Translations under genes and position numbers: made by a program
The notes under the pieces: model-generated
Databases searched by the model: none
Seen by the model: the letters and a program-made list of their open reading frames with translations, nothing else
What the model was told of the DNA's origin: nothing
Part shown: piece by piece, positions 1 to 38,590 of the stretch
Layout of the letters: every line of letters begins with the position of its first letter
How positions within the stretch are numbered: position 1 is the stretch's first letter
DNA from: Chondrilla cf. caribensis
Taxonomy: Eukaryota > Porifera > Demospongiae > Chondrillida > Chondrillidae
Length of the DNA stretch: 64,000 nucleotides
NCBI GenBank assembly: GCA_964020155.1
Contig: OZ026559.1
Span: forward strand, 2,242,845 to 2,306,844
Direction: 5' to 3'

Positions 1-280
1 ATTATGTACTGAGGTTTTAGCAGGAAATTAAAATTATTATGAGCTACTCAACCTATTATAAGATTAGTACAATGTCATGCTGTTTCCAACTATTGAAACG
101 CCATCATTATTACATTATTTTCTGAAAGTTTGTAGTAGTGGTTGACTAATATTATAACTGTGATTCATTTTTCAATTCACCTCTGATTATAGTATTAAAA
201 TTACATATATCTTGATATTTGCATGTAATCACCATATACGTGTGCTAAAACTTTAATGATATCTTCAATTCTTGTTTCAG

Positions 281-1147
281 ACTGATAGTGCTGATGTTGT
301 CATACAAAATGTACATGTGGGAGTAGAAAGAATCTGCATTGTACATGATAGGTCTAAAGAGCCTCTTAGTAGAGAAGAACAACTACCACCTGTGGAGCCC
401 TCATGTGATGAAGGTTGGTATATATACAATTCCTTTGTGTATGTCCACATTTGACTGTTTCAACCTTATCCCTTCGTATATTGCAAGTTGAATACACCAG
501 TGTAGTTGGAGATGTGGAGAGAACTCTATCTGAAGACCGTCATAGTAGAGAAGAACCACTACCACCTGTGGAGTCCTCACGTGATAAAGGTTGGTATATA
601 TACCATTCCTTTTTGTGTGTCCACATTTCACTGTTCCGACCTGATCCCCTCGTATATTGCATCCTAGCACCTGTGTGTTTGTTGTACATACATACATCTC
701 AAAGTAAGTTATCTATTACTTTTTCTAGCTATAGTACTAATTCTAATGGTTCAATGTAATATGTGAATCGGTTCAATGTATGCGAATATCACATAAATTA
801 ATATTATATTCTTTGATTCTTTGGGTTTGCACCATGTAGATCCACTCCTGACCACACCCACTCTTAACAAGATCGATGATCTCATAGTTCGACAAATCGC
901 TCTTGATTGGTATAGAGTTGGTTCACACTTGGAGATAGAGATTCATACTCTAAACATAATTGAAGCAGACATCCACCCACCAAGTGTGGAGAAGTGCTGT
1001 TTTACCATGTTTAACAAGTGGCTGTCTCATGAGAAAGGTACAGGTCCTGCCCCAAGACTCTGGAGAACTGTTCTCAAGGCACTCAAGGAAGTTGGATACA
1101 CCACTGTAGCTGGAGATGTTGAGAGAATTCTATTTGAAAGGAAATAA
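281..1147 (+). CDS. 3' end of a death-domain gene (unit 1; upstream exons lie outside the window)
   Basis: Three exons are visible. Linker exon 281-413 follows a TTTCAG acceptor and ends GATGAAG/GTTGG. A second linker-like exon, 488-589, is in phase 1 at both ends. The terminal death-domain exon runs 840-1147 with TAA stop. The last exon encodes about 100 residues with the six-helix death-domain pattern: an IDDLIVRQIALDWY helix, a LEIEIHTLNIIEAD segment, EKCCFTMFNKWL, and a final RLWRTVLKALKEVGY helix. Death domains form oligomeric signalling complexes in apoptosis and NF-kB pathways. The complete paralogues at 5.5-13.6 kb and 19.6-26.7 kb show that the missing part should be a membrane-anchored Roc-COR-like GTPase. 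The exon at 488-589 is unusual because it joins a copy of the death-domain tail (EYTSVVGDVERTLSE) to a linker copy. The donors (GTTGG) are weak but are shared with unit 3. Confidence 0.75.
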
Positions 1148-1808
1148 CATTATTATGTTTGCTTTGTGTAGAACTACCTCAACCTACTGTAATTATATAC
1201 AATGTAATTTGTATATTATTGTTTGTTAAGACTTTAGTTATAGATGAAAATAACCAGTATATTCGATTTTGAGAACGTGATTATTTTAAAATATCTGTAT
1301 TTTAATTGCCATGCATATTTCCTATAATGATAATTAAAATAATAATATATAATATACCATTGCAGATGAATCTGCATATGTAATACATCATGCATCATGA
1401 TAGTATGAATTTAGAATCGACACTGACTGTACAACCATAGGATTTCAAGCTATGGGTTACAAAATTGTATCTAAACAAGAGATGCCAAGAGGCTATTACA
1501 CTAGGCACTCAGAAAAAAGGAGGAAAAACGTATAGTAAAAGCGGAATTTAATATTTAATTTATAATAATATGGCGTGGTTATTGTCTATTATGGTAGGTC
1601 TAGATATCTAAAGTCAAGTAACATAATTTGAGTCCCACCACTATTGAAATCTGTTGTGTACTTGTAAAAGTAGGTATAACGACTGGGAGCTAGGTGTAGT
1701 CACTTGTACATTAGATCACACAATAAAATGAAGTTTGATTATTTTCAAGTTGGATTCATGTCCATACAAAAACAATATTGATTCAAGTTTTGATACACTG
1801 CCATAGAT
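1148..1808. other. Convergent intergenic spacer of unit 1
   Basis: No credible coding sequence. The spacer separates the tail of the + strand death-domain gene from the tail of the - strand TDP2-like gene. The same spacer recurs at 13,567-14,333 and 26,654-27,469 with high similarity, including an ACACAATAAAATGAA segment near its right end that could serve as a polyadenylation signal for the + strand gene. It is useful for aligning the three units. Confidence 0.6.
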
Positions 1809-2663
1809 CTAACACTTGCTAAGTTCAAATTCTGCCAGAATCCCCCAATGGTCACTGGGGAATCTTCCACAGGATTCCACACGCTCTTTACCAATTAACC
1901 TGAAGGACACAGGTTTTAGTTTATTTGTGTCTCTTCGACAAAGATACAGACGATCAAACCTCAACTTAGATTTATAAGGTGCCCCAAGGTTATCGTTGAC
2001 AGCAGTGTCCCATGTGTACTGGTGTTGAGGGTCAGATCCACATGATTCCCACACATCAACGCAACACGAAGGAACACGGACTGCAGCAACTTCAGCATCA
2101 CGTACATTCAAATCCCCGCCCAAAATGCTAGCCTGTCCATCGATATCGCACAGCTGGGTCATTTGTTCAAAACATTGTGCAAGCTGTCTCTTGCGTTCAC
2201 CGGACGAACTCTTCATGCTCTCAAGATGTGAGGTGAACAAGTGCACGGGGTGGTCCGAAATGGAAATCTTTTGGTGCAAGAGGTGACGTAACATTTGTGA
2301 ATAGGGAAATTTCGTGATTTTCAGAGAGTCGTCCAGGCAAATTGTCTTCTTCTTGAGGACGAATATCCCATGGAAATAGGGCAGCTGGTCGTTGGCACAC
2401 CGGCAGTCGTATTCAGACTCGAGAGCGTTCGACAGCATATCCCAAGTCATCGGTACTATTTCTTGAATAAAGACTACATCAGGTTTTTGCGTCGTTATGT
2501 TCTTCACCACAGACATGGTCCTCTCGAAAACGTTGTTGTTGTCCAAACCATCTATATTCCAAGTTAAGAGAGAGAATATTGTACTTTCTCCGATGATTCT
2601 AATCTCTTCTTCAGAATCTTTTCCCGTCGTTTTTAACCTAGCTTGACTTTCTTGGAAAGCCAT
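1809..2663 (-). CDS. TDP2-like: TDP2-like 5'-tyrosyl-DNA phosphodiesterase, copy 1
   Basis: A single-exon ORF of 284 residues, endonuclease/exonuclease/phosphatase (EEP) fold. The motifs are those of tyrosyl-DNA phosphodiesterase 2: TWNIDGL at 34-40 (metal/catalytic Asn), FIQE at 65-68 (metal-binding Glu), SHLES at 145-149, GGDLNVRD at 182-189 (catalytic Asp), DVWE at 203-206, YTWDT at 216-220, RFDR at 235-238 and FPSDHWG at 268-274 (catalytic His). TDP2 removes trapped topoisomerase II peptides from DNA 5' ends, and in vertebrates it was also described as the TNF-receptor/TRAF-associated protein TTRAP. Vertebrate TDP2 has an N-terminal UBA domain of roughly 100 residues; here only a short leader precedes the catalytic core. 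It lies tail-to-tail with the death-domain gene. The family call is secure; the cellular substrate of these duplicates is not known. Confidence 0.9.
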   Translation of the reverse strand: MAFQESQARLKTTGKDSEEEIRIIGESTIFSLLTWNIDGLDNNNVFERTMSVVKNITTQKPDVVFIQEIVPMTWDMLSNALESEYDCRCANDQLPYFHGIFVLKKKTICLDDSLKITKFPYSQMLRHLLHQKISISDHPVHLFTSHLESMKSSSGERKRQLAQCFEQMTQLCDIDGQASILGGDLNVRDAEVAAVRVPSCCVDVWESCGSDPQHQYTWDTAVNDNLGAPYKSKLRFDRLYLCRRDTNKLKPVSFRLIGKERVESCGRFPSDHWGILAEFELSKC

Positions 2664-3040
2664 TTTTCCGATTACAATACACGCAATAGATCACTCACCG
2701 GATTTCCTCGTTTCCTGTGTACGTATACTGTAAATGAAAATTGGACATAACGTATATCCTAGATTCACCCATCACTGCATGCGAACCCCCTTCTCGCCCA
2801 TGCACCCACCCACATACACCTAACAAAAGTGCTATTTAATATTTCAGTATTATACCTGGTCATGATCATAATACTGTACATAATACATGTAATGATTTGA
2901 CACAGAGTAAATGTTAGTCACGTCACATTGTCCTCAACACTACTGACAATGCTTGCTTTAGTGCACTAGAGGAATAAAATGAAATATCTGGACAAAAATC
3001 TAAAGTTAATCTCTAGTAGTTCGGAAACCAAGCCACAACT

Positions 3041-4275
3041 CTACATTTTTCCCAGGTCGGTCTTGCAGACAGGACAGGCACGGTGGGTGTCTTTCACCAC
3101 ACACAATGGGATCAAACAGCAACCACTGCAGAAGAAGAAGCAGAAAAAGTAGCCATACATTGGATTGGATTGAGCTAAAGGTATGTACACAGTAAGTGGT
3201 AGGCCCCTTCCATGTTTTCACACCACTCCACTTCATTCATATTCTGTCGTTGAACACAACATGAGGGAACACCAGCTACAACCTCAGCATCACATACATT
3301 CAACTCCAAAATCCAAATTCAAATCAGAATGGAAAAAAAAACAAACTTTTGTCTAATAAAGTTGAATCTGCGTACCATTGCAGTACATACATACGTACAT
3401 ACATAGGTATATTCACCATGGTGGGTGTGGTATCAAATTCTTTCAAAGTTACCAGTAGGACCATAGATGATATTCTCATATAATAATAATAATTATTATA
3501 TTATGTATCCTGAATTGTGGCAACATCAAAACTCTGGTTACAATAGAGCATTGAAGTGATTTCAAATATTGTCTTCAGTCTAAACCGATTGGACATATTA
3601 CCGTGTGAATGTGTTCTGTATCAATTCAAGTGAACCATGTTGCTGGTTTAAAACCAATTCAAATAAAGCACATCAATCCACTAGTGTTACCAGTGCTAGA
3701 ATGACCAACGGGGACACATACATAGAACACACGAAATATTTGCTTATGTAATCATTCTCACTATAATTCATGTAAACAGAAGATGGAAACAGAGGCAAAA
3801 ATATCTAAATATGCTGTGAATCGTTGTCACAGTAACAAGGCCTTACTACCACTGTTTGTACAGATGCACTACATCAGGCTTCTCACCACCAGGGGACGGG
3901 GATATCAAGCCAAGGAGACAGATGACTAGACACCACACTCAGGCAGTGAAACTCAATTATTATAATACAACTGTGCCACAGAGTGCTGAGTACTCACCAC
4001 CAGAGGATGGGGAAGAAGAACCCCAGGAGGAAGATGACAAGCACCCAAATCCAGGTACTTGAGCCCGTCTTCTGCATTGTTGTTGGGCTAACATTGTTCT
4101 GGCAGGATGGACAGGTGACACCACCCCCTCCACCAGTCTGTACAACAGTGACAGTAGTGGGAGCGGGTGCTTGAGTCGTCCAGGCAAATTGCTTTCTTCC
4201 TGAGGACGAATATCCCGTGGAAATAGGGCAGCTGGTCGTTGGCACACTGGCAGTCGTATTCAGAGTCAAGAGCAT
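3041..4275 (-). pseudogene. LITAF-domain gene, unit 1 copy, with its 5' end replaced
   Basis: The two LITAF exons are present: exon 1 at 3998 to about 4172 and exon 2 at 3041-3125. Exon 1 holds VTCPSCQNNVSP, a Trp-rich hydrophobic segment and donor TG/GTGAGT. Exon 2 follows CTGCAG and reads GCCLIPLCVV...CPVCKTDLGKM, stop. The paired CxxC motifs flanking a hydrophobic stretch define the LITAF domain, which binds zinc and sits on the cytosolic face of late-endosomal membranes. The proline-rich start seen in paralogues is gone. Upstream of about 4175 the sequence is a fragment of the TDP2-like gene, read here in a different frame. An ORF still runs through from an ATG ending at 4275, which would give a 120-residue chimeric protein, so either a pseudogene or a new fusion is possible. 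Confidence 0.6.
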
Positions 4276-4475
4276 TCGACAGTATATCTCAAGTCATCGG
4301 TACTATTTCTTGAATGAAGACTACATCAGGTTTTAGCGTCGTTATGTTCTTCACCACAAATAAGGTCCTCTCGAGAACGTTCTTGTTATCCAAACCGCCT
4401 ATATTCCAGGTTAAGAAAGAAAAACTGTACTTTCTAGACGATACTAATCTCTACTTCAGAATCACATTGCGTCAT
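4176..4475 (-). pseudogene. 5' fragment of a TDP2-like gene at the unit boundary
   Basis: About 300 bp align closely with the N-terminal coding part of the TDP2-like gene, from about residue 20 to the CLDD segment near residue 111, compared with 2,310-2,610. It carries frame-breaking changes and stops in the TDP2 frame. The same fragment lies at 16,706-17,000 in unit 2 but not after the LITAF gene of unit 3. Beyond it begins the 5' region of the next death-domain gene, so it marks the tandem-unit junction. Confidence 0.75.
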
Positions 4476-5526: not shown

Positions 5527-8500
5527 ATGGACATGTACAATTTCAAGAACACTACAAGTCCTAATGCTACTTCAAATTCGCCAGGTATTTTTTCATTTGG
5601 TGAGTTCCCATTAATTTGTCATGAAATTTATTTATTATTGGACCTTCTCTGACAAAAAAGAGAAAATAATATGCAGTGTTAATTAATGCTTAATATGTAA
5701 TTCATATTAAGTATGTAAATATTGATTATAATATTATATTATCAAAATATAATTTACACAATATGATTGTCTTTGGGAATAGCCATCATCCATTTCAATA
5801 ATATACCTCTTGACAATACTGTATACATTTCTCATTTAGTGTGCAAAATATATAGTAATTTTCTAATTAGTTATTTCAATCATTATAGTGCTATTTTGTT
5901 GACTGAATTATTACTAATAATTTACTAATTACTACTAATTATTAAGTAATATTATGACATAATTATTATGTTGATGCATATCATCGTTCATGCATGGTAA
6001 TGTAAGATATTTACAATATCATACCAAAGTGCATGTTAGTGACAATGTTTGTATAGTCATTGGTGGCCATTCATGATATAGTTTTGAATTGGTCAGTTTT
6101 CAAAGAATCTAACCAAAATTTTTCAGTTTTATAAAAAAAGCTATGAGGGAGCTTGCTTTGGCAGATAGGCAGTATAAAGATGTTGTTCATCACGAAGTGT
6201 GACAACCAACCAATTTGGAATTGACTTTCCTAGGACAGAAAGCAGCCCTTACTTTCAATGTGATCACTTACAAATCTATCCATGCACATGTAATATAATA
6301 TTATGTCTGCTTAAATTTCGGGTGGCGTGCAAAAGTTGAAAAATGATGTCTGATCCACCTACTAGTTAGCCACTCAAGCCTTTATAAACAGTTTGATGTG
6401 ACAGTCATATTAATATTTCCTTATACACCTTGATTTAAAGCTACTTGGCACACTTTACTACCAGATGTTTAAGCAATTATCCATCAATTGGTACGATTAA
6501 TATTATTATCATCATTGCATTAATTTATTGACTCTTGGATTATCATTAATAATAACTTAAAGATACCCTTGCACATTATTGTAATATTTGTACAGTCAGT
6601 GGCATATGTATAATACAGTGCCACCCACTTAGCTAATAGGCCACAATTGGTTTTGTAAAGTTTTGGCCTAATATCCATTTTGGGACTTTTGCCTCATTAT
6701 CATGACATAAGTCGACATTATAATGTGATAAAATTGTTATGCACCATGTATTATCCTTAATTCCATCACAATTCACAATTATGTCTCAAAGTGTAGATAA
6801 TATGAAATACTACAGTCACACATGTACACACAATAATATAGCACATAATATAACTTAGTCTATTTACACTGGAAAAAGTCCAGCAATGAGTTCTGCACTT
6901 GGTTTTGTGTTGTATTGCTTTAACACTTAACACAATAAAATTATAAATCTTTATTCTAACCAAAAATTGTTGTCACAGAACAGAGAATGAAGGGGGGGAG
7001 CGCCCTGGTACCCCCTTTGGGGGAAATCCTGCATGCATATCAATGTTTATACTTAATTGTGTATATTCAGTCAGTATATTATATAATATTGTCATAATTT
7101 GTTCATTAATTATTATTTGTAAGTAATTCTATCTATCTACTATTATATTAGCAACAATTTTGTCATCTGTATACATTATTACACACATGTATTATTCATA
7201 TATTACATTAAACATAGCTACATGTAACAATATTTAATATTACTCTTTATAATATTTTTGTATTATTGCAGGAGTCAATGCTTTCTTCTTCTTATCTAGT
7301 ATGGGCTTGACCATCGTTGATGTTGTGATTGCATTTCTCTTCCTAAGACGATTCAAGAAAACTAAGTCCAAATTGTTTTGTGGTATTTGCAGTTCGCTTA
7401 TACTAACCATAAGCATCATATTGACTATCTGCTCACCGATTATATGCATCGTTGCACTGAGCATTGTGAAGCAGGTGGATGAAGCTAGTTCATTATGCGG
7501 TAAGTCTCATGTGTTATTGTGATAATTATAGCGCACATGCACGATTAGCTGTCATGAAATACTTAGTATAAACTATGTATATCTGTGCCAAAGTTGACAA
7601 TTATTAGTTTCATTTCGTTTCATTTTTATTAAATTATTGAATTATAAAGAAATGGGACCACTTAGCCAATGCAGGCTATTTTACAGGGTTGCCATTTAAG
7701 AAAGAGAGGGGTCATTATTATTCAGTTATGTGAATTTGAATATTCAACAGATATCAACTGCAGCTATATTGGTAAATGATTATCATTATCTGAGTGGAGA
7801 TAATGGGTATAAATATAATCTTTTCTCAAGTTCTTGAGTCAGTTGATATTTTTGTGAAAAGTACATTCTCGTGTCAGTAGTTCATGGTGTGGACTCTATT
7901 CCAGTGTTTGCAAACTTTTCACTTGTTACGTACCTCTTTGCAACTCTATTAATGTCATAACATTGCTTTTTCTTCTCATCCAATTCACTAAAGATCAATG
8001 TTACTTCCACTCTTTTATCCTTCAGTATATTCGGGATGGGCTAGTTTTTTTTCAAGCACGTGTACGTTTTTTTTTGGCTTTACTATACTAATATTGTCAA
8101 CAAGGAAGAAGTCACATGGTAAGTATTTGCATGTATCAGAATATTATAATTATATTTCTGAATCATTATTATCACTGCTACATTACCTCTATGTTATGCA
8201 TAGTGTAACTGTAACTGCACATGTTGGCTGAGCTGGTCTGATGGAGTTGGTGACCATTAATTGTACCAATATCAGTCAGTGGCTTCTGTCTTGTTGACAG
8301 GAATAGCAAGTCGTAGATAATATTATGTATGTGAACAGACAGACATTATATAATAAAATATGAGGATGCATAAATGACACAATCAATTCTGAATGACATC
8401 TGTTTTCTTTATTCTTGAGGAGGTACTGACTACAGGCTATATTGCAGTGGTAGAAAGAGGTTAACTATTATATGTACATAACAACATTATAATATCATAA

Positions 8501-8989: not shown

Positions 8990-9035
<46 letters not shown>

Positions 9036-15185: not shown

Positions 15186-15561
15186 TTTTCCGATTACAAC
15201 ACACGCAATAGATCACTCCCCGGATTTCCTCGTTTCCTCTGTGTCGTATACTGTAAATGAAAATTGGACATACTGTATACCCTACATTCACCCATCACTG
15301 CAAGTGAAACCCCTCTCACCCACTCACCCACATACACCTAACAAAAGTGCAATTTAATATTTCAGTAGAATAAATTATAGCTGGTCATGATCGTAATAAA
15401 AGATCACATGTAATGATTTGATACAGAGTAAATGTTAGTCAGTTCACGTTGTCCTCAACAATACCGACAATACTTGCTTTAGTGCACTAGAGGAATAAAA
15501 TGAAATATCTGGACAAAAGTCTACAGTTAATCTCTAGTAGTTTGGAAACCAAGCCACAATT

Positions 15562-16675
15562 CTACATCTTCCCCAGGTCGGTCTTGCAGACAGGACAGGC
15601 ACGGTGGGTGTCCTTCACCACACACAATGGGATCAAACAGCAACCACTGCAGAAGAAGAAGAAACAGAACACGTAGCCATACATTGGATTGGATTGAGCT
15701 GAAGGTATGTACACAGTTAATGGTAGGCCCCTTCCATGTTTCACACCACTCCACTTCATTCATATTCTGTCATTGAACACAACACAAGGGAACACCAGGT
15801 ACAACCTTAGCATTGCATACATTCAAATCCAAATTCCAAATTCAAATCAGAATGGAAAAAAAAACTTTTGTCTAATAAAATTGAATCTACCATTGTAGTA
15901 CATACATGTGCAGATATATTCACCATGGTGGGTGTGGTATCAAATTCCTTCAAAGTTCCCAGTAGAACCATAGATGATTCAAATATTGTCTTCAGTCTAA
16001 ACCAATTGGACACATTAGCGTGTGAATGTGTTCTGTATCAATTCAAGTAAACCACATACCAACTGGTTTAAAACCAATTCAAAATAAAGCACATCAATCC
16101 ACTAGTGCTACCAGTGCTAGAATGACCAACGGGGACACATACATAGAACACGGGAAATATTTGCTTATGTAATCATTCTCACTATATTTCATGTAAACAG
16201 AAGGTGGAAACAGAGGCAAAATATCTAAATATGCTGTAAATCGTCACAATAACAAGGCCTTACTACCATTGTTTGTACAGATCCACTACACCAGGCTTCT
16301 CACCACCAGGGGATGGGAAGTATCAAGCCAAGGAGACAGATGACCAGGCACCGCACCGAGACAGTGGAACTCAATTATAATACAACTGTATCACAGAGTG
16401 CTGAGTACTCACCACCAGAGGATGGGGAAGAAGAACCCCAGGAGGAAGATAACAAGCACCCAAATCCAGGCACTTGAGCCCGTCTTCTGCATTGTTGTTG
16501 GGGTGACATTGTTCTGGCAGGATGGACAGGTGACACCCCCCCCTCCACCAGTCTGTACAACAGTGACAGTAGTGGGAGCGGGTGCTTGAGGGGGCGGCTA
16601 CTGCTGCTGTTGAGGGGGTGGGTACTGCTGAGGAGGTGGTGGATATGCGTTGGGAGTAGGAGCTGAAGGTTCCAT
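15562..16675 (-). pseudogene. LITAF-domain gene, unit 2 copy, interrupted by a nonsense codon
   Basis: The structure matches unit 3. Exon 1 is 16,413-16,675 (start MEPSAPTPNAYPPPPQQ) with donor TG/GTGAGT. Exon 2 is 15,562-15,646 (GCCLIPLCVVKDTHRACPVC, then KTDLGKM, stop) after CTGCAG. At 16,598-16,600 the codon that is TAC (Tyr) in the paralogues' YPPP repeat is TAG, which would stop translation after 25 residues, before the first CxxC. Everything downstream (CPSC, hydrophobic segment, CPVC) is intact, so the inactivation is recent or is a sequencing error. A TDP2 fragment lies immediately upstream, as in unit 1. Confidence 0.72.
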
Positions 16676-16705
16676 TTTTGTGTGTTGTAGTGGGAGCGGG
16701 TGTTC

Positions 16706-17000
16706 GAGTCGTCCAGGCAAATTGCTTTCTTCCTGAGGACGAATATCCCGTGGAAGTAGGGCAGCTGGTCGTTGGCACACCGGCAGTCGTATTCAGAGTC
16801 AAAAGCATTCGACAGTATATCTCAAGTCATCGGTACTATTTCTTGAATGAAGACTACATCAGGTTTTAGCGTAGTCGTGTTCTTCACCACAGATAAGGTC
16901 CTAGCTCTCGAGAACGTTCTTGTTATCCAAACCGCCTATATTTCAGGTTAAGAAAGAAAAACTGTACTTTCTCCGACGATACTAATCTCTTCTTCAGAAT
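16706..17000 (-). pseudogene. 5' fragment of a TDP2-like gene, unit 2 boundary
   Basis: Counterpart of the fragment at 4,176-4,475, covering the N-terminal part of the TDP2 coding region with disrupted frame. Next to it is a short second copy of the LITAF exon stretch GTAGTGGGAGCGGGTG, suggesting that unit 1 lost its proline-rich segment by recombination between these two short copies. The fragment is followed directly by the left inverted repeat of the 2-kb element. Confidence 0.72.
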
Positions 17001-19643: not shown

Positions 19644-22600
19644 ATGGACATGTACAATTTCAACAACACTACGAGTCCGAATGCTACTTCAAGTTCACCA
19701 GATTTTACATATGTTGGTGAGTTGACATTAATTTGTCATCAAATTTATTTATTATTGGGCCTTCTCTGACAAAATATCGAAAATATTGTGCAGTGTTAAT
19801 TAATACTTGATAGTAATATTATGTAATAATTCATATTAAGTACATAAATAATGATTGTAATATTATATTATCAAAATATAATTTACACAATATGGTTGTC
19901 TTTGGCAATAGCCATCATCCATTTCAATAACATATCACTTGACAATACTGTATACATTTCTCATTTAGTGTGCAAAATATTATAGTAATTTTCTAATTTG
20001 TTATTTCAATCATTATAATAATGCTATTTTGTTCACTGAATTGTTTAATTTACTAATAATTTACTAACTACTACTAATTATTAAGTAATATTATGACATA
20101 ATTATTATGTTGATGCATATCATTGTTCATGGCATGGTAATGTAAGATATTTACAATATCATACAGAAGTGCATGTTAGTGACAATGTTTGTATATTAGT
20201 CATTGGTGGTCGTTCATGATATAGCTTTGAATTGGGTCCATGCATGTGTTAAGTGTCAGTTTTCAAAGAATCTAACCAAAATTTTTCAGTTTTATAAAAA
20301 AAGCTATGAGGGAGCTTGCTATGGCAGATAAGCACTATAAAGATGTTGTTCACCACAAAATGTGACAACCAATCAATTTGCAATTGACTTTCCTAGGACA
20401 AAAGGCAGCCCTTACTTTCAAGGTGATCACTTACAAATCTATCCATGCACATGTAATATAATACGTATGTCGGCTTAAATTTTTGGGTAGTGTGCAAAAG
20501 TTGAAAAATGAAGTCTGATCCACCTACTAGTTAGCCACTCAAGCCTTTATAAACAGTTTGATGTGACAGTCATATTAATATTTCCTTACACCTTGATTTA
20601 AAGCTACTTGGCACACTTTACTACCAGATGTTTGAGCAATTATCCATCAATTGGTACGATTAATATTATTACCATCATTGCATTATTGACTCTCGGATTA
20701 TCATTAATAATAAGATTCCCTTGTACATTATTGTGATATTTGTACAGTCAGTGGCATATGTATAATACAGTGCCACCCACTTAGCTAATAGGCCACAATT
20801 GGTTTTGTAAAGTTTTGGCCTAATATCCATTTTGGGACTTTTGCCTCATTATCATGACATAAGTCGACATTATAATGTGATAAACTTGTTATGCACCGTG
20901 TATTATCCTTAATTCCATCACAATTCACAATATTATAACAACAATGTCTCAAAGTGTAGATAATATGAAATACTACAGTCACACATGTACACACAATAAT
21001 ATATATAGCACATAATATGTTAGTCTATTTACACTGGAAAAGGTTCTGAATCAGCAATGAGCTCTGCACTTGGTTTTGTGTTGTATTGCTTTAACACTTA
21101 ACACAATAATATTATAAATCTTTATTCTAACCAAAAATTGTTGTCACAGAACAGAGAATAAAGGGGGGGAGCGCCCTGGTACCCCCTTTGGGGGAAACCC
21201 TGCATGCATATCTATGTTTATACTTAATTGTGTATATTCAGTCAGTATATTATATAATATTGTCGTAATTTGTTCATTAATTGTTATTTGTAAGTAATTC
21301 TATCTATCTACTATAATTATATTAGCAACAATTTTGTCATCTGTACTATACATTATTCCACACCTGTATTATTCATATATTACATTAAACATACATGTAA
21401 CAATATTTAATATTACTCTTTATAATATTTTTTGTATTTTTGCAGGATTAAATGCGTTATGCTTCTTACTTAGTATGGGCTTGAACATCTTTGACATTGG
21501 GATTACAGTTTTCTTCCTAAGACGATTCAAGAGAACTAAGTCCAAATTGTTTTATGGTATTTGCAGTGTGCTTATACTAACCATAAACACCATATTGACT
21601 ATCTGCTCACCGATTACATGCATCATTGCACTGAGCATTGTGAAGCAGGTGGATGAAGCTGATCCATTATGCTGTAAGTCTCATGTGTTATTGTGATAAT
21701 TATAGCGCACCTGCACGATTAGCTGTCATGAAATGCTTAGTATAAACTATGCATGTCTGTACCAAAGTTGACAATTATTAGTTTAAGAAAGAGAGGGGTC
21801 ATTATTATTCAGTTATGTGAATTTGAATGTTCAACAGATATCAACTGCAGCTATATTGGTAAATGATTATCATTATCTGAGTGGAGATAATGGGTATAAA
21901 TATAATCTTTTCTTAAGTTCTTGAGTCAGTTGATATTTTTGTGAAAAGTACATTCTCATGTCAGTAGTTCATGGTGTGGACTCTATTCCAGTGTTTGCAA
22001 ACTTTTCACTTGATAAGTACCTCCTTGCAACTCTATTAATGTCATAACATTGCTTTTTCTCCTCATCCAATTCACTAAAGATCAATGTTACTTCCACTCT
22101 TTTATCCTACAGTTTCTTTGGGAGTGGCTAGTCTTATTCCAAGCATGTGTATGTTTGGCTTTACTATGCTAATATTGTCAACAAGGAAGAAGGCACATGG
22201 TAAGTATTTGCAAATATCAGAATATTATAATTATATTTCTGAATCATTATTATCACTGCTACAGTACCTCTATGTTATGCATAGTGTAACTGTAACTGCA
22301 CATGTTGGCTGAGATGGTCTGATAGACTTGGTGACCATTAATTTTACCAATATCAGTCAGTGGCTTCTTTCTTGTTGACAGGAATAGCAAGTCGTAGATA
22401 TGTATGTGAACAGACAGACATTATCTTACTATAATTTACGGGGTCTCTGTTTGTTTGTTTGTTCACAAACTCCTCCTTCAGTTCGCATGCGATCGATGTC
22501 AAACTCCCCAATCCTTCTCAGCGGCACCTGTGAAGTATACTAAGGGGGTTGGCGTTTCGTTTAGGCCTTTCTTCTAGAATTCGAACGAAACCGTACTATT

Positions 22601-25600
22601 GCCGTACTTGAAAGGCGCCATTTTTATGACACGTTACGGACGAATACGCCCATAGGGCGGGTAATTCGTACTCGTATAATAAAATATGAGGATGCTTAAA
22701 CGACACAATCAATTCTGAATGACATCTGTTTTCTTTATTCTTGAGGAGGTACTGACGGCAGGCTATATTGCAGTGGTAGAAAGAGGTAAACTATTATAAT
22801 ATTATGTACATAACAACATTATAATAATAATATCATAATAACATAATAACTAATAATTTCATATCAAATTGCTGCACTTATTTTTTTTGCTGCATTTATT
22901 TGAAACTATCAAGTGAGCCCGACTTTGGCGGGCTCACCTGCTATGGTGAGTCATGTGCATCTTTGCTGGTGGCAACAGAGGGTAGTTGCTGTAATGATGG
23001 TAGGTTTAAAATTTCATTGTTGGACAACAGCCAATCGAGTCGCCCGATAACCAGAAGTCACTGGGCTGATAATTAAAAATGGTCATCAGCCGCGAAGGAA
23101 AAACCAAAAACGGAAGGTTCTCTTCACATGGACAGTTAGACGGCCGATTTTAACCCGTGGAGGACACTTCCCGAGCCGTACTTCATAATCCCTGAGAGTT
23201 TGGTGGCGCCTGTGCAGTAGTTTTTGCCCAAATCGCGAACAAACAAACAAACTGAATTATATATAGATAATACTCTATAAAATTGCAAAATATTTGCAAG
23301 TCACTATTAGATTTCAGGTGAAAAGCTGTGTGAGCCATGCCCACATTGTGTTCAGTCATGTGAAATAGTTTAACTATATTAATATATATTTTATTTATTG
23401 ATGTCATTGAACATCCTCTCAGAAAAAATGAAATGTTATTTTCTATCCGACTTCATGTTTATCGCTTCTCAATTTGAATAGATCATGTTATAGGTTTATT
23501 TAATATTTATTTCTCTGTAGTAACAGTGCACAATAACTGGATGGGACACTACAAAGCTGTGTGTAAAAAACATTCCTCAGAGAAAATTCAATTAACCCGC
23601 TGTCTGTTTATTGGCCCACCTGGTGTGGGAAAATCCAGCCTGAAACACTTGCTTCTTCACAACCAGTCCACTGATGTCTCTAGCAGCACTCTAGTGTTGG
23701 AGGAACCAAGCATAGTTACACAAGAACGTGAGAACCCCTGGAAAGTAGTTGATGATGATATGCGCAAACAGCTCGTAAAGTGTAAAGCTCAACGAATACA
23801 TTTGGAATTGGTGGAGAAGCAACAGTATTGTTGTGATAATTTTTGCAATTTTGAAAGGGAATATCGGGAAAGTAATGAATCACAATCCACGTCCATCTTG
23901 GCTGAAGTATCAAGTTGTTGTCATTGCCATGAAAGTAGAGATTGGAATCTTTTGACTCAAGCCTTGAGTGAATTGCATGAGGAAATTGAAACGCAGAGGA
24001 TTACACAATATTCTGAGGGTCAAAAATTCATGCAGTTCATTCATTTTCTGGATTCAGGTGGTCAGGCAGTGTTTCATGACATCTTACCTCTGTTCATAGG
24101 AACACCATGCCTGTACGTCTATGTGTTTAACTCTGTCTATGGTCTGGATGTACCATTGCCAATAAATTATCGTCCTACAAATGGCCAGGAGCCATTCATT
24201 CAGACAGGAACTGAAACAGCACGTGATTTAATGCTACGTACCCTCTCCAGCATTCATACCATGCAACAGAAGGTTTCAGTCAATTTTAAAGATCTGCTCG
24301 ATAAGAATGAAGATGCCCCACAAAGTTGCGTACTGCCGGTTGCTACATTCAAGGACAAATTGCTGGAAGGAAATGGTGAACTGAGAAATGAGGAAGATCT
24401 TCGCTGTCAATGGGCATCTGAGCATGAAAGCCAAGCTTTGAAGCCATATAAGTCTCTACTCAGCTCAAAGGACTTACTTCTCGTCAATAATCAGATGTAC
24501 ACTCCTGGATCAAATGCTACAGAAGATGATAAATCCACTTTGGAGGCACTCAAGAAATCGATTTCTTCCTCAAGATCTGCTTTTAACTTTGAGATACCCC
24601 TCCTGTGGCTAATTGTTGATCTCATAACCAACAAGGCAGGATTGAAGTTCATTGAGTATTCCTGTCTCCAGAAATTTTGCCTCAAAGAACGTTTTGTTTC
24701 TTCTAAGAGAGAGTTCAGCACACTCATTGCCTTCATGCACACCCTTGGGTTCTTTGCTTACTTCGAAATCCCAACATTCACTAAACCCCGTCTGATATGC
24801 ACTGATGTGGCTTTCCTCTATCAACAAGTCTCCAAGCTCCTTGTGGTTCAATTCCTCCCATCACCACGATGTGATTCCACTAAAGAACTGAAGGCAAAGG
24901 GTATCATAAGCAGTAAATATTCTGAGATGTTTGACGAGCTGGGAATTGCCAATAATGATATAATGGATCACCAGTGGTTCCTCCAGCTCCTGGTCCATGT
25001 TGGAATTGCAGCCAAAACACAGAACGATTGTGACTTTGTCCCACACACTCTACCACCCGAACCCATCTCACCTTCACCACTCTCTGAATACAGTCAGTAT
25101 TCTGTTAGTCCGATATGTTTCACGGTAAAATTGAAGCAAGACACGTCATTTGGACCTGATTACATCTATATTCTCCCCAGAGGCATCTATTGTCAGCTGT
25201 GCACGTATGTCATTCGTGTAGCTGGATGGTTGCCAGTGCCAGAGAGAAGCTGCCGTACTAGAGTTGCATACCTGATGGATACCACCGCCTCAATCTACTT
25301 GACAGAAACCCCCACCCACATTGAAGTATCTGTTCATGTACATCAAGGATCTACTGGAGTTCGTAGACTTGCAATTGCCGTTTCAGATGTCCACTCTATT
25401 TGCAGCAAGATCAAGACTCTTGTTCTCAGGGGTATCGAGGCTGCTTACAAGACCCTTTTCAGTCAGAGTGCCAGTGATGTGTCAATTGCTGTGGGATTCA
25501 CATGTCATTGTAAAGGTGCGAGCAGAGACCATCACCTAAGGCTAGCGCTCCTCAGTGATGACAATTGTGGGAACGCCCGTTGCTGTCATGGCATGATCAC

Positions 25601-26653
25601 TCCACTTCGTGCACAGGAAATTGTCTGGCTCAGCAAAGATAGTGTGGTAAGCAATTTAAGTATACTAGACTGTTAGCATTGCATATCATTATGCATGTAC
25701 ATAGCTTTTAGCAGGAAAAATTAATAATAATATTATTGTGATCTACTAAACCTATTATAAGATTAGTACATGCTATTTCCAACTCAGTCTAATAGTATTG
25801 ACATATCTTCATTATAATTACATTATTTTCTGAAAGTTCGTAGTAGTGGTGGACTAATATTAAACTGTGATTCACTTTTCAAACCACCTCTGATTATAGT
25901 ATTAAAATTACATATATCTTGATATTTCCTTGTAATTACCTTAAATATACGTGTGCTACAACTGAAATGTTATCTTAAATTCTTGTTTCAGACTGATAGT
26001 GCTGATGTTGTCATACAAAATGTACATGTGGGAATAGAAAGAATCTGCATTGTACATGATGGGTCTGAACAGCCTCTTAGTAGAGAAGAACAACTACCAC
26101 CTGTGGAGCCCTCATGTGATGAAGGTTGGTAGATATACCATTCCTTTGTGTGTGTCCACAGTTCACTTTTTCAACCTGATCCCTTCGTATATTGCATCCT
26201 AGCACCCGTGTGTTTGTTGTACATATGTACATCTCAATGAAAGTGATCTATTACTTTTACTAGCTAAGTACTAATTCTAATGGTTCAATGTATGTGAGTA
26301 TCACATAAATTATTATTATATTCTTTGATTCTTTGAGTTTTTACCATGTAGATCCACTCCGGACCACACCCACTCTCAACAAGATAAATGATCTCATAGT
26401 TCAGCGAATTGCTGTTCATTGGTATCCAGTTGGTCTCCACTTGGAGATAGAGATTCATACTCTAAACATCATTGAAGCAGACGTCTACCCACCAAGTGTG
26501 GAGAAGTGCTGTCTTACCATGTTTAACAAGTGGTTGTCTCATGAGAAAGGTACAGGTCCTGCCCCGAGACTCTGGAGAACTGTTCTCAAGGCACTCAAAG
26601 AAGTTGGATACAACAGTGTAGCTGGAGATGTGGAGAGAACTCTATTTGAATAG
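19644..26653 (+). CDS. Membrane-anchored Roc-COR-like GTPase with C-terminal death domain, unit 3 (complete gene)
   Basis: Same architecture as unit 2. Exons: 19644-19716, 21446-21673, 22113-22199, 22762-22785, 23318-23359, 23521-25646, 25992-26124, 26352-26653. Exon lengths match unit 2 exactly for exons 1, 2 and 4 and differ by whole codons in exons 3 and 5, with the same phases, which supports the model. The N-terminus MDMYNFNNTTSPNAT keeps both glycosylation sequons. Three membrane helices follow, with RRFKRTKSK and STRKK on the cytosolic side. Substitutions are concentrated in the first membrane exon (for example ALCFLLSMGLNIFDIGITVF against AFFFLSSMGLTIVDVVIAFL). The gene looks intact. 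The splice model needs transcript support; the domain calls do not depend on the small exons. Confidence 0.72.
22430..22680. mobile_element. Insertion of about 250 bp in unit 3 only
   Basis: Unit 3 holds ACTATAATTTACGGGGTCTC...TTTGTTTGTTTGTTCACAAACTCC...CGTACTCG between sequences that are adjacent in unit 2 (at about 8,349). Its start is related in inverse orientation to the end of the repeat at 9,200-9,245 (GCGAACAAACAAACAG). It is probably a short non-autonomous transposon or SINE-like repeat; family not determined. Confidence 0.6.
22905..23260. repeat. Interspersed repeat in an intron, unit 3
   Basis: Shorter form of the repeat at 8,560-9,245, lacking the nested block present in unit 2. 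It starts AAGTGAGCCCGACTTTGG and ends GCGAACAAACAAACAAACTG. Not coding. Confidence 0.55.
23521..25646 (+). CDS. Large Roc-COR-like exon of the unit 3 death-domain gene
   Basis: It follows TTTCTCTGTAG and ends AGTGTG/GTAAGC. Motifs are as in unit 2: GPPGVGKSS, DSGGQ and ATFKDKL, a HTLGFFAYF winged-helix segment and the LPRGIYCQLC COR-like segment. The region after the GTPase is closely similar, but the far C-terminus diverges (LRLALLSDDNCGNARCCHGM against LRLVTDDIKFCKSACCSHGI), with codon-level insertions. The open frame over 700 codons in both copies argues for purifying selection or recent duplication. Confidence 0.8.
25992..26653 (+). CDS. Linker and death-domain exons, unit 3
   Basis: The linker exon 25,992-26,124 encodes TDSADVVIQNVHVGIERI and continues to EPSCDE, the same form as unit 1 rather than unit 2 (which lacks the extra VH and the PLSREEQ segment). 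The death-domain exon 26,352-26,653 ends LFE, stop TAG. Death-domain hallmarks are present: NDLIVQRIAVHWY, LEIEIHTLNIIEADV, EKCCLTMFNKWL, RLWRTVLKALKEVGY. Confidence 0.78.
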
Positions 26654-27469: not shown

Positions 27470-28291
27470 CTAACACTTGCTGAGTTCAAATTCTGCCAGA
27501 ATCCCCCAATGGTCACTGGGGAATCTTCCACAGGATTCCACACGCTCTTTACCAATTAACCTGAAGGACACAGGTTTCAGTTTATTTGTGTCTCTTCGAC
27601 AAAGATACAGACGATCAAACCTCAGCTTGGATTTATAAGGTGCCCCAAGGTTATCGTTGACAGCAGTGTCCCATGTGTATTGGTGTTGAGGGTCAGATCC
27701 ACATGATTCCCACACATCAATGCAACAGGAAGGAACACCAACTGCAGCTACTTCAGCATCACGTACATTCAAATCCCCGCCCAAAATGCTAGCCTGTCCA
27801 TCAATATCGCACAGCTGAGTCATTTGTTCAAAACATTGTGCAAGCTGTCTCTTGCGTTCACCGGCCGAACTCTTCATGCTCTCAAGATGTGAAGTGAACA
27901 AGTGGACGGGGTGGTCCGAAATGGAAATCTTCTGGTGCAAGAGGTGACGTAACATTTGTGAATTGGGAAATTTCGTGATTTTCAGAGAGTCGTCCAGGCA
28001 AATTGTCTTTTTCTTCAGGACGAATATCCCGTGGAAATAGGGCAGCTGGTCGTTGGCACACCGGCAGTCGTATTCAGAGTCAAGAGCGTTCGACAGCATA
28101 TCCCAAGTCATCGGTACTATTTCTTGAATAAAGACTACATCAGGTTTTAGCGTCGATATGTTCTTCACCACAGACATGGTCCTCTCGAAAACGTTGTTGC
28201 TATCCAAACCGTCTATATTCCAGGTTAAGAGAGAGAATATTGTACTTTCTCCGATGATACTAATCTCTTCTTGACTTTCCTGGAAAGCCAT
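27470..28291 (-). CDS. TDP2-like: TDP2-like 5'-tyrosyl-DNA phosphodiesterase, copy 3
   Basis: An intact 273-residue EEP ORF with all TDP2 motifs (TWNIDGL, FIQE, SHLES, GGDLNVRD, DVWE, YTWDT, RFDR, FPSDHWG). Compared with copies 1 and 2 it lacks eleven residues near the N-terminus (the ARLKTTGKDSE segment), a clean in-frame deletion before the catalytic domain. The rest has few changes (VGVPSCCID for VRVPSCCVD). The loss affects only the short leader, so activity should not depend on it. Position and orientation repeat those of copies 1 and 2. Confidence 0.9.
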   Translation of the reverse strand: MAFQESQEEISIIGESTIFSLLTWNIDGLDSNNVFERTMSVVKNISTLKPDVVFIQEIVPMTWDMLSNALDSEYDCRCANDQLPYFHGIFVLKKKTICLDDSLKITKFPNSQMLRHLLHQKISISDHPVHLFTSHLESMKSSAGERKRQLAQCFEQMTQLCDIDGQASILGGDLNVRDAEVAAVGVPSCCIDVWESCGSDPQHQYTWDTAVNDNLGAPYKSKLRFDRLYLCRRDTNKLKPVSFRLIGKERVESCGRFPSDHWGILAEFELSKC

Positions 28292-28666
28292 TTTCTCGAT
28301 TACTACACACGCAATAGATCACTCACCGGATTTCCTCGTTTCCTCTGTGTCGTATACTGTAAATGAAAATTGGACATACCGTATATCCTAGATTCCCCCA
28401 TCACTGCATGTGAACCTCCTTCTCACTCACCCATACACATATCTAGCAAAAGTGCAATTTAATATTCCAGTAAAATAAATTATAGCTGGTCATGATCATA
28501 TTATACGATCACATGTAATGATTTGACACAGAGTAAATGTTAGTCAGTTCACGTTGTCCTCAACAATACCAACAATACTTGCTTTAGTACACTAGAGGAA
28601 TAAAATGAAATATCTGGACAAAAATCTACAGTTAATCTCTAGTAGTTTGGAAACCAAGCCACAATT

Positions 28667-29928
28667 CTACATCTTCCCCATGTCGGTCTTGCAGACAGGA
28701 CAGGCACGGTGGGTGTCCTTCACCACACACAATGGGATCAAACAGCAACCACTGCAGAAGAAGAAGAAACAGAACACGTAGCCATACATTGGATTGGATT
28801 GAACTGAAGGTATGTACACAGTAAATGGTAGGCCCCTTCCATGTTTTCACACCACTCCACTTCATTCATATTCTGTCGTTGAATACAACATGAGGGAACA
28901 TCAACTACAACCTCAGCATCACATACGTACATTCAACTCCAAATTCCAAATTCAAATCAGAATGGAAAAGAAAACTTTTGTCTAATAAAGTTGAACCTAC
29001 CATTGCAGTACATACGTATGTACATACATAGGTATATTCACCATGGTGGGTGTGGTATCAAATTCCTTCAAAGTTATCAGTAGGACCATAGATGGTATTC
29101 TCATATAATAATAATAATTATTATATTATGTATCCTGAATTGTGGCAACATCAAAACCCTGGTTACAATAGAGCATTGAAGTGATTTCAAATATTGTCTT
29201 CAGTCTAAACCGATTTGACATATTACCGTGTGAATGTGTTCTGTATCAATTCAAGTGAACCACATACCAACTGGTTTAAAACCAACTTAAATACAGCACA
29301 TCAATCCACTAGTGTTACCAGTGCTAGAATGACCAACGGGGACACATACATAGAACACGCGAAGTATTTGCTTATGTAATCATTCTCACCATATTCATGT
29401 GAACAGAAGGTGGAAACAGAGGCAAAATATCTAAATATGCTGTGAATCGTTGTCACAGTAACAAGGCCTTACTACCACTGCTTGTACAGATCCACTACAC
29501 CAAGCTTCTCACCACCAGGGGACGGGGATATCAAGCCGAGGAGACAGATGACTAGACACCGCACTCAGGCAATGAAACTCAATTATTATAATACAACTGT
29601 ACCACAGAGTGCTAAATACTCACCACCAGAGGATGGGGAAGAAGAAGCCCAGGATGAAGATGACAAGCACCCACAACCAGGCATTTGAGCCCGTCTTCTG
29701 CATTGTTGTTGGGGTGACATTGTTCTGGCAGGATGGACAGGTGACACCACCCCCTCCACCAGTCTGTACAACAGTGACAGTAGTGGGAGCGGGTGCTTGA
29801 GGGGGTGGGTACTGCTGCTGTTGAGGGGGCGGGTACTGCTGTTGAGGGGGTGGGTACTGTTGCTGAGGGGGCGGGTATTGCTGAGGAGGTGGTGGATATG
29901 CGTAGGGAGTAGGAGCTGAAGGTTCCAT
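28667..29928 (-). CDS. LITAF-domain protein, unit 3 copy (intact)
   Basis: Exon 1 is 29,624-29,928, start MEPSAPTPYAYPPPPQQYPP, ending CTCTGGTG/GTGAGT. Exon 2 is 28,667-28,751, beginning after CTGCAG. The joined product is about 129 residues: a proline/glutamine/tyrosine-rich N-terminus with repeated YPPPQQQ, then TCPSCQNNVTP, a Trp-containing hydrophobic segment (SNAWLWVLVIFILGFFFPILW), then CGCCLIPLCVV and CPVCKTDMGKM. The two CxxC knuckles around an amphipathic membrane segment are the LITAF domain, a zinc-binding monotopic membrane anchor on endosomes. PPxY-type motifs (PPPY/PPQY) in LITAF proteins recruit WW-domain ubiquitin ligases such as NEDD4/ITCH; here the many YPPP runs are related but not exact PPxY, apart from a few PPQQY forms. 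Confidence 0.85.
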
Positions 29929-30837
29929 TTTTATGTATCTCTACAAGGAAAACAATAATAAATAATTCTGGCAATAAAAAGCAACTTATATTCAACTCAT
30001 TTATTACTTATAGCACAACATGCATATGTACATTATGTACAAAGTATATACAAACGTATATCTGTATATATACATGTTATATATATACAATAATTAAAGT
30101 AATCATAGCCGATCATGATATCATATGATATATACATACATATGTATGTACAGTGAAGGATGGAATTGTCTGAATTTTCAAAGGAAAGCATGAAGGCCTA
30201 ACTCCCAATAAACCCAATGAATGCAGCTCGGGTCATTTGGCACATTTGATACTGACTGCATGTAAACTGAACTGTAAACAAATAAACAGACTGAGAGAGA
30301 TGACCACAGTGAGATGGCCCAGCAGATAACAAGGGAGTACATACGTACGTACGTATGTAATTCTATGCCTATGCAATAATGGTAATTATAACCCATACCA
30401 CAATAATATATAGGCACCATTATCACAATCATGATAATCTGGTAATACTACATGTTTCTCATGAAGTTTGAAATATTACACTTTGTCTGAAAAAGCAGGT
30501 TTTGCAGTAGATGAAAACTATTGAAATAATAAAGTTACGTATGTGCTGAGCAATAAACAAATGAATCTAGTGTCTAACAAAGCTTAAAATCTGGACTGAA
30601 TTGCTTGTGTGTGTTTGTACGTGTGTCTGTGCGCGCATGTGTGTTCGTGTGAGCAGGTATGTTTACATACACACGTATGTGAGTATGACTTAGTGACATT
30701 GCTACTTGAATGTCGTCCTCACGGGACATTCCAACAATTACCACATCCTCTGGTGGGACTGCCTATGGCAATGAACAGTTCAGTGTACTAATGATTCCAG
30801 GTTTACACGAGATGATCAAAAAAATAGCACTGTGTGT

Positions 30838-38586: not shown

Positions 38587-38590
38587 TCAC

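What the first reader, a model, noticed from the sequence alone, without database searches (positions are those of the whole stretch)
1..29930. Tandemly amplified three-gene module: death-domain GTPase, TDP2-like enzyme and LITAF
Three units repeat the same order and orientation (+ death-domain GTPase, - TDP2, - LITAF) with non-coding spacers conserved between them. Each family has a link to TNF/death-receptor biology elsewhere: death domains; TDP2, first described as the TNF-receptor/TRAF-associated TTRAP; and LITAF, named for LPS-induced TNF. Co-amplification of the set, rather than one gene, suggests a co-selected innate immune or cell-death cassette. The module is seen directly; the functional link is inference.
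Basis: partly seen in the sequence, partly recalled or inferred. Interest (0 to 1): 0.8.

Follow-up and report, generated by a model that had tools for sequence, protein, structure and literature searches.

The report
Triplicated sponge membrane death-GTPase gene array
A sponge-like animal genome holds three side-by-side copies of a gene for what looks like a membrane-anchored cell-death switch protein whose membrane part is changing unusually fast, as recognition receptors often do, together with copies of a DNA-repair gene and an endosome gene that may only have been carried along.

Summary
In detail: three tandem units of about 11-12.5 kb, each with a + strand death-domain GTPase, a - strand TDP2 and a - strand LITAF; the first unit's GTPase body lies just left of the window. 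I model the GTPase as a six-exon gene, open in 3 of 3 units: short N-terminus with glycosylation sequons, three hydrophobic helices, Roc-COR GTPase (fold nearest LRRK1 and bacterial Roco), linker, death domain. Rocos with death domains are known; I found none with this membrane part. Between units 2 and 3 the helix exons show dN 0.168, dS 0.043, adjacent introns 0.03; the GTPase body (w 0.33-0.42) and TDP2 (w 0.10-0.13) are constrained. Unit 1 contrasts are weaker. This suggests diversifying selection on a membrane receptor. The three-gene TNF cassette is partly supported: GTPase and TDP2 stay intact in every unit, but LITAF exon 1 is normal in only one of three, and LITAF genes continue alone to the right. 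The TNF links rest mostly on names. Segmental duplication around a diversifying receptor is the simplest reading. No expression or ligand data were available; function is inferred.

The parts
281..413 (+). Unit 1 GTPase gene, exon 5 of 6 (linker); exons 1-4 lie left of the window
   Evidence: Open frame, AG acceptor, GTTGGT donor chosen by phase; similarity to P0009 residues ~810-840 judged by eye
840..1146 (+). Unit 1 GTPase gene, exon 6 (death domain)
   Evidence: tblastn of P0009 C-terminus E 1.6e-23; Pfam Death E 0.012; gene model
1809..2690 (-). Unit 1 TDP2, single-exon open frame, 293 aa
   Evidence: motifs TWNIDG, QEI, GGDLNVRD, SDHWG present
3041..3125 (-). Unit 1 LITAF exon 2 (ends approximate, counted by hand)
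   Evidence: Motif search..CCLIPLCVVKDTHRACPVCKT.. after a CAG acceptor
3997..4164 (-). Unit 1 LITAF exon 1, zinc-ribbon half; usual proline-rich N-terminus absent
4172..4444 (-). Unit 1 TDP2 5' fragment with an in-frame stop (pseudogene)
5527..5599 (+). Unit 2 GTPase gene exon 1: start, short N-terminus with NTT and NAT sequons
   Evidence: Conserved start and GTGAGT donor in 3 of 3 units
7272..7499 (+). Unit 2 GTPase gene exon 2: hydrophobic helices 1 and 2
   Evidence: AG/GTAAGT boundaries, hydropathy; 27 of 228 aligned sites differ from unit 3
8026..8118 (+). Unit 2 GTPase gene exon 3: hydrophobic helix 3 and basic juxtamembrane segment
   Evidence: AG/GTAAGT boundaries; 12 of 87 aligned sites differ from unit 3
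9488..11607 (+). Unit 2 GTPase gene exon 4: Roc-COR GTPase body
   Evidence: 89% identical to the unit 3 body, whose model matches Roco structures
12015..12129 (+). Unit 2 GTPase gene exon 5 (linker)
   Evidence: its donor (GTATAT) is not the one used in units 1 and 3
13259..13566 (+). Unit 2 GTPase gene exon 6 (death domain)
   Evidence: weak fold model
14334..15212 (-). Unit 2 TDP2, 292 aa
   Evidence: PDB match to TDP2 E 7.5e-54
15562..15646 (-). Unit 2 LITAF exon 2 (ends approximate, counted by hand)
16412..16675 (-). Unit 2 LITAF exon 1, with an in-frame stop in the Gln/Pro-rich part
16705..16998 (-). Unit 2 TDP2 5' fragment with stops (pseudogene)
19644..19716 (+). Unit 3 GTPase gene exon 1
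21446..21673 (+). Unit 3 GTPase gene exon 2: hydrophobic helices 1 and 2
22113..22199 (+). Unit 3 GTPase gene exon 3: hydrophobic helix 3
23521..25646 (+). Unit 3 GTPase gene exon 4: Roc-COR body
   Evidence: AlphaFold2 pLDDT 78.5, pTM 0.81; Foldseek LRRK1 E 4.4e-15, C. tepidum Roco E 3.8e-12
25992..26124 (+). Unit 3 GTPase gene exon 5 (linker)
26352..26653 (+). Unit 3 GTPase gene exon 6 (death domain)
27470..28318 (-). Unit 3 TDP2, 282 aa
28667..28751 (-). Unit 3 LITAF exon 2 (ends approximate, counted by hand)
29623..29928 (-). Unit 3 LITAF exon 1, intact, begins MEPSAP

Best explanation
The window holds a three-copy segmental tandem duplication in a sponge-like animal. Its driving gene is most likely a membrane-anchored death-domain Roco receptor. 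Shown by sequence: each unit has an uninterrupted six-exon reading frame for a short N-terminus with N-glycosylation sequons, three hydrophobic helices, a Roc-COR GTPase and a death domain; the helix exons differ between units 2 and 3 far more at amino-acid-changing sites than at silent sites or in introns; the GTPase body and TDP2 are constrained. Inferred: the membrane part faces a changing partner (microbe, toxin, or self/non-self label). Engagement changes the nucleotide state or dimerisation of the cytosolic Roc-COR unit, which clusters the death domains and recruits death-domain adaptors, giving cell death or inflammatory transcription. The units exchanged DNA by recombination or gene conversion, so the membrane module and the GTPase body have different histories. 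TDP2 and LITAF were duplicated because they sit next to the receptor. TDP2 copies are kept under constraint for their own reasons; LITAF is decaying in two of three units.
For: Gene model with GT-AG introns and continuous frame in 3 of 3 units, 975, 978 and 982 aa. Three hydrophobic stretches in 3 of 3. Relative P0009 (1093 aa) has a hydrophobic segment, then a basic segment, Roc-COR and Death, though its Pfam scores for COR-A, Roc and Death lie below the curated cut-offs. Roc-COR fold. Death domain; weakly 29, 71. U2-U3 helix exons dN 0.168, dS 0.043, 37 nonsynonymous against 3 synonymous changes, Fisher 0.008, bootstrap 0.001. Nonsynonymous sites 37/246 against 31/1029 in adjacent introns, p 2.8e-11. 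37 of 40 changes nonsynonymous against 0.72 expected, p 0.0016. GTPase body w 0.33-0.42, TDP2 w 0.10-0.13. Mosaic divergence along the units. LITAF damage in two units.
Against: No transcript of this genome was seen. Exons 1-3 rest on splice signals, open frames and hydropathy, with no significant Pfam match; helix 1 of U2 and U3 only just passes the hydropathy threshold (1.64 and 1.68 against 1.6), and the same scan also flags a stretch inside the GTPase of P0009. The exon 5 donor was chosen by phase and differs in U2. U1-U2 and U1-U3 contrasts are weaker (w 1.50 and 1.25 over the helix exons; bootstrap 0.038 and 0.139). With exon 1 included, U2-U3 w is 1.75, Fisher 0.126, bootstrap 0.046. 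The contrast was found by exploration. Changes fall in the helices as well as loops, and the outside part is only about 24 residues plus one loop, small for a ligand binder. The death-domain exon is not clearly constrained (w 1.17, 0.41, 0.59). TDP2 constraint in all three copies is more than simple hitch-hiking predicts. The genome-wide search for further GTPase copies did not complete.
Confidence: 0.55

Rival explanations
1. One reading: the three genes form one co-selected innate-immune or cell-death cassette. The GTPase receptor triggers death signalling, TDP2 modulates TRAF or repairs DNA damage during it, and LITAF routes the receptor through endosomes.
For: Three units keep the same order. 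GTPase and TDP2 intact and constrained in 3 of 3. Equal contig lengths suggest linkage of GTPase with TDP2 on two other contigs and of GTPase with LITAF on one. LITAF N-termini of U2 and U3 begin MEPSAP, with a PSAP motif of the kind that binds ESCRT-I (motif meaning recalled; sequence).
Against: LITAF exon 1 is damaged or truncated in 2 of 3 units. LITAF amplifies alone to the right. Selection differs sharply between the genes. No co-expression data. The TNF link is mostly historical naming.
Confidence: 0.2
2. Ordinary recent segmental duplication without adaptive meaning. The apparent fast change in the membrane exons is a mis-modelled non-coding stretch or an effect of uneven gene conversion.
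For: Mosaic divergence suggests gene conversion or unequal exchange. Exon 1 and its surroundings are also divergent, with high dS. No significant Pfam match to exons 1-3. 1.4% of non-coding windows reach exon 3's divergence.
Against: Conversion does not separate nonsynonymous from synonymous sites (37 against 3). Frames and splice sites hold in 3 of 3 although U1's N-terminus is only 41-44% identical to the others. Exon 2's divergence (0.118) is reached by no non-coding window of equal length in the same stretch.
Confidence: 0.2
3. Assembly artefact: uncollapsed haplotypes laid end to end. (Raised from 0.05 to 0.07 on review, because the second contig carrying these proteins may be part of the same assembly.)
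For: Sponge genomes can be very heterozygous (recalled); no reads were available. The 559,567-base contig listed for P0001 and P0002 could be a contig-level piece of this same assembly, so it is no independent proof.
Against: Units differ by 3-51% depending on the stretch, with private insertions and differently damaged LITAF genes.
Confidence: 0.07

Closest known systems
Roco proteins (LRRK1/LRRK2, bacterial Roco)
   Same: Roc G domain with P-loop GPPGVGKSS followed by COR; predicted fold matches LRRK1 and C. tepidum Roco
   Different: No leucine-rich repeat or kinase found; three N-terminal hydrophobic helices and a C-terminal death domain
Animal Rocos with death domains: DAPK1; placozoan Rocos with CARD and death domains
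   Same: Roc-COR and a death domain. PMC6337361 (passages) names DAPK1 as characterised by a C-terminal death domain; PMC11378527 (passages) says Trichoplax has at least 17 ROCO genes with LRR, TPR, CARD and death domains around Roc-COR
   Different: Kinase and ankyrin repeats of DAPK1 (recalled) not found here; whether any placozoan Roco has membrane helices was not seen in the passages
Amphimedon queenslandica LOC109593740 (P0086)
   Same: Predicted sponge protein with Roc and a C-terminal Death match
   Different: Only 28% identical over 26% of the query; a weak Neuralized match (E 5.8e-4) instead of the three-helix N-terminus
Brown-algal LRR-ROCO candidate immune receptors (PMC11378527, passages seen)
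   Same: A Roco family with an N-terminal recognition part under diversifying selection
   Different: There the variable part is shuffled LRR exons, and in N. decipiens most genes are dispersed; here it is hydrophobic-helix exons in a tandem array
Death receptors (TNF receptor superfamily)
   Same: Membrane protein with a cytosolic death domain (here inferred)
   Different: No cysteine-rich ectodomain, three helices instead of one, and a GTPase between membrane and death domain
TDP2
   Same: Catalytic domain and motifs
   Different: No UBA-type domain found in the single-exon frame; three intact tandem copies
LITAF
   Same: Zinc ribbon split around a hydrophobic stretch, proline-rich N-terminus with PSAP
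   Different: Clustered multigene family on one contig

Membership tests
Roco (Roc-COR) family | Roc G domain with nucleotide-binding motifs | tested here: met
   GPPGVGKSS, LDSGGQ, TFKDK in 3 of 3 units; Pfam Roc E 4.7e-4 for U3 only, below its cut-off
Roco (Roc-COR) family | COR domain after Roc | tested here: met
   Pfam COR-A E 3.8e-4 for U2 only, below its cut-off; Foldseek to Roc-COR structures up to E 4.4e-15
DAPK1-type Roco | Protein kinase and ankyrin repeats (recalled) | tested here: not met
   No kinase or ankyrin hit in Pfam scans of two GTPase bodies, three N-terminal models and three death-domain exons
Death domain superfamily | Death fold / sequence profile | tested here: met
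   Profile (three exons plus P0009 and P0086 pieces) matches PIDD E 6.2e-5, ankyrin-3, FADD, RIPK1. Weaker: Pfam 1 of 3 exons at E 0.012; none of the genome's 101 Death matches in the window; own model pLDDT 63.6 with five helices, Foldseek top hits death domains but none at E below 0.001
TNF receptor superfamily | Cysteine-rich extracellular repeats | tested here: not met
   N-terminal model has about 24 residues before helix 1; no significant Pfam match (best E 0.015 to an unrelated GTPase family)
TDP2 | Endonuclease/exonuclease/phosphatase fold with TDP2-type motifs | tested here: met
   Pfam 3 of 3 copies, PDB match for the U2 copy, motifs 3 of 3
TDP2 | 5'-tyrosyl-DNA phosphodiesterase activity | not testable with these tools
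   No assay
TDP2 | N-terminal UBA-like domain of vertebrate TDP2 (recalled) | tested here: not met
   Only Exo_endo_phos families at E 0.001 in the single-exon frames; possible upstream exons were not searched
LITAF | CxxC, hydrophobic stretch, HxxCPxC zinc ribbon | tested here: met
   CPSCQNN in exon 1 and HRACPVC in exon 2 in 3 of 3 units; PF10601 hits

The most novel reading that the evidence does not exclude
The array is a recognition locus of sponges: a new receptor class in which a hypervariable three-helix membrane module is wired through a Roc-COR GTPase to a death domain, diversified by gene conversion and positive selection among tandem copies, acting in self/non-self or microbe recognition.
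Probability: 0.25. Interest if true: 0.87.

Novelty: new variant of a known kind. Interest (0 to 1): 0.6.

Why it matters
Sponges reject foreign tissue and live with dense microbial communities, and how recognition leads to cell death in them is poorly known (general knowledge). A membrane protein joining a fast-changing helix module to a Roco GTPase and a death domain would be a layout not seen in the passages of the three Roco-related papers consulted here, and it gives concrete genes to test. It would also extend to an animal the idea, proposed for brown-algal LRR-ROCO genes (PMC11378527), that Roco proteins can serve as diversifying immune receptors.

Tried and rejected
Rejected: a CARD between the GTPase and the death domain. 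P0009 has a sub-threshold CARD match (E 0.078), but tblastn of P0009 found nothing matching that part in the units. Rejected: a separate multi-pass gene in the spacer; phases and splice sites join these exons to the GTPase. A stretch at 6947-7123 and 21118-21294 that looked like a further membrane exon has no counterpart in unit 1 and was left out of the model. Fold prediction of the death-domain exon gave a weak model, so the profile match carries that claim. One search's Pfam hits to the N-terminal models are all weak (E 0.015 or worse) and were not used. Searches scanned the unit 3 LITAF exon in a wrong frame (window:29612-29929) and found nothing; the right frame is seen. An early single-exon selection estimate (w 2.3-3.1) was replaced by the spliced model. 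The XK-related hit to one membrane exon (E 0.0095) was not pursued.

Literature (open-licence PMC papers only; listings of titles and abstract starts): three searches with Roco, death domain and sponge, metazoan or transmembrane terms (3 of 3 papers listed, 9 of 11, 10 of 22) and one with Amphimedon and Roc-COR (0 papers) showed me no membrane Roco with a death domain. Passages only were read in PMC8195603, PMC12909245, PMC11378527 and PMC6337361. Searches for TDP2 with LITAF (3 of 3 listed, 6 of 148 listed) and sponge with LITAF (15 of 51) listed no paper on their linkage.
Full report
What was checked. Among the TDP2 relatives, the best that carry a species name are two from the sponge Dysidea avara (50% and 48%); Amphimedon queenslandica comes lower (43%) (120 of 426 hits listed). 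I take the genome to be that of a sponge-like animal; this is inference.

The array. Self-alignment of the window and its flanks shows three tandem units in the order + GTPase, - TDP2, - LITAF: U1 about -6445 to 4466, U2 4531 to 17003, U3 19186 to 29883, with aligned blocks 74-96% identical. The U1 GTPase body is outside the window. Genome-wide, 5 of 5 TDP2 matches (three intact, two broken 5' pieces) and 10 of 10 LITAF matches (33 candidates scored) fall in this region of one contig; both searches warn that counts are lower bounds. The search for other GTPase copies did not complete (15 busy errors, listed under steps to tell).

The GTPase gene. One big exon per unit encodes the Roc-COR body. 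Its AlphaFold2 model (unit 3; 55 sequences, pLDDT 78.5, pTM 0.81) matches LRRK1 (E 4.4e-15), C. tepidum Roco (E 3.8e-12) and LRRK2. A relative of 1093 aa, P0009, carries a hydrophobic segment before and a death domain after this body; its Pfam scores (COR-A 2.7e-4, Death 2.9e-4, Roc 0.0053) are below the curated cut-offs. Its C-terminus finds one exon in each unit. A profile of these exons with the corresponding pieces of P0009 and P0086 matches death domains of PIDD (E 6.2e-5), ankyrin-3 (1.5e-4), FADD and RIPK1. Weaker or negative: Pfam reports 1 of 3 exons (E 0.012); the six-frame Death search lists none in the window; the isolated model is poor and its Foldseek hits, though death domains, are not significant.

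The 5' exons. Aligning the 5' regions of the three units shows shared splice signals, and the six-exon model is open in 3 of 3 units with AG acceptors and GT donors (the exon 5 donor was chosen by phase and lies elsewhere in U2). It predicts a short N-terminus with NTT and NAT sequons, three hydrophobic helices, then GTPase and death domain. In U2 and U3 the loop between helices 1 and 2 and the segment after helix 3 are basic (RRFKKTKSK or RRFKRTKSK; STRKKSH or STRKKAH), which fits an outside N-terminus and a cytosolic GTPase; in U1 the segment after helix 3 is not basic (read by eye; the rule is general knowledge). Pfam does not recognise this part. The exon 2 DNA of U2 finds only itself and the U3 copy in the genome; the diverged U1 copy was not picked up by that search.

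Selection. Over the two helix exons, U2 and U3 differ by 37 nonsynonymous and 3 synonymous changes: dN 0.168, dS 0.043 (the nucleotide alignment counts 39 of 315 sites). Adjacent introns differ at 31 of 1029 sites, the three 5' introns together at 147 of 3139. With the intron transition/transversion ratio 0.72 of random changes would be nonsynonymous; 37 of 40 has p 0.0016. Against this: with exon 1 included w is 1.75, Fisher 0.126, bootstrap 0.046; for U1-U2 and U1-U3 w over the helix exons is 1.50 and 1.25, bootstrap 0.038 and 0.139; and exon 3's divergence is matched by 1.4% of non-coding windows of its length, exon 2's by none. The death-domain exon is mixed (w 1.17, 0.41, 0.59). The GTPase body (w 0.34, 0.42, 0.33) and TDP2 (w 0.10, 0.11, 0.13) are constrained in all three pairs.

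Mosaic history. In 400-base bins over 5725-9324, U2 and U3 are 3-8% apart while U1 is 18-51% from both; over the GTPase body all pairs are 4-12% apart; in the intron before the death domain U1 and U3 are close (0.09) and U2 differs (0.27-0.41). This points to exchange between units, so the membrane module and the rest of the gene need not share one tree.

TDP2 and LITAF. TDP2 is a single-exon frame with the TDP2 motifs in 3 of 3 copies; the U2 copy matches solved TDP2 structures (E 7.5e-54). All three copies are intact, which is more than passive carriage would predict. LITAF has two exons, and exon 2 is present in 3 of 3 units. Exon 1 is intact only in U3; in U2 it has an in-frame stop and in U1 its usual N-terminus is missing and a broken TDP2 piece lies in its place. 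To the right LITAF copies continue without the other two genes (exon 2 at about 41.2, 46.7, 53.3, 57.7 and 75.4 kb; no GTPase or TDP2 match there, part of the flank being N), and blocks around some of them are duplicated on their own.

Relatives. Protein tables give only contig lengths, so linkage is indirect: P0003 (GTPase, about 85%) and P0096 (TDP2, 97-98%) both list 172,452; P0004 (GTPase) and P0216 (LITAF, the only hit) both 15,229; P0011 (GTPase, 50%) and P0097 (TDP2, 68-70%) both 3,579,723. I compared the 95 GTPase rows with the 120 listed TDP2 rows by eye and saw only these two GTPase/TDP2 coincidences; they are the two best TDP2 hits. The same contig does not mean adjacent. That contig may be another assembly or a contig-level piece of this one, so it is not independent proof of the array.

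Reading. The simplest account is a segmental tandem duplication whose adaptive centre is the GTPase gene: a membrane-anchored Roco with a death domain and a diversifying membrane module. By analogy with Roco proteins, for which a cycle between monomer and dimer is proposed (PMC6337361, passages seen), and with death-domain assemblies (recalled), engagement at the membrane would switch the Roc-COR unit and cluster death domains. These steps are inferred. TDP2 and LITAF are neighbours; a functional tie is possible but unsupported beyond linkage. PMC8195603 (passages seen) places related AP-GTPase/COR proteins in animal apoptosis and prokaryotic conflict systems. PMC11378527 (passages seen) describes brown-algal LRR-ROCO genes with diversifying selection and mentions placozoan ROCO genes with CARD and death domains, so a Roco with a death domain in an early animal is not itself new; the membrane module and its rapid change are what I did not find described.

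Noticed in passing
30000-64000 and the right flank to about 76200: A run of minus-strand LITAF-like genes, several with both exons, whose Gln/Pro-rich exon 1 contains 24-base tandem repeats (for example 54107-54280, 58718-58888).
   Followed up: partly
44132-45447: A tandem array of about 128-base units, roughly 93% alike.
   Followed up: no
51895-52298: A 17-base tandem repeat (GGTTAGTACACACTCCT, about 23 copies) whose sequence also occurs in an array about 21 kb left of the window.
   Followed up: no
38540-38908: An open frame that looked by eye like the end of a tyrosine-recombinase-type mobile element; Pfam gave no match at E 0.1.
   Followed up: partly
L016:2243-3022, just left of unit 1: A 260-aa open frame that looked by eye like the end of a retrotransposon reverse-transcriptase protein; Pfam gave only a weak C1 match (E 0.03).
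   Followed up: partly
L015:3-338 and L015:7125-7796: A fibronectin type III domain exon (Pfam E 2.8e-15) followed further on by a tyrosine-containing open frame without Pfam match, possibly one receptor gene beside the array.
   Followed up: partly
genome-wide (G000): 101 Death-domain matches listed in this genome (150 of 185 candidates scored), with clusters on several contigs, consistent with a large death-domain repertoire.
   Followed up: no
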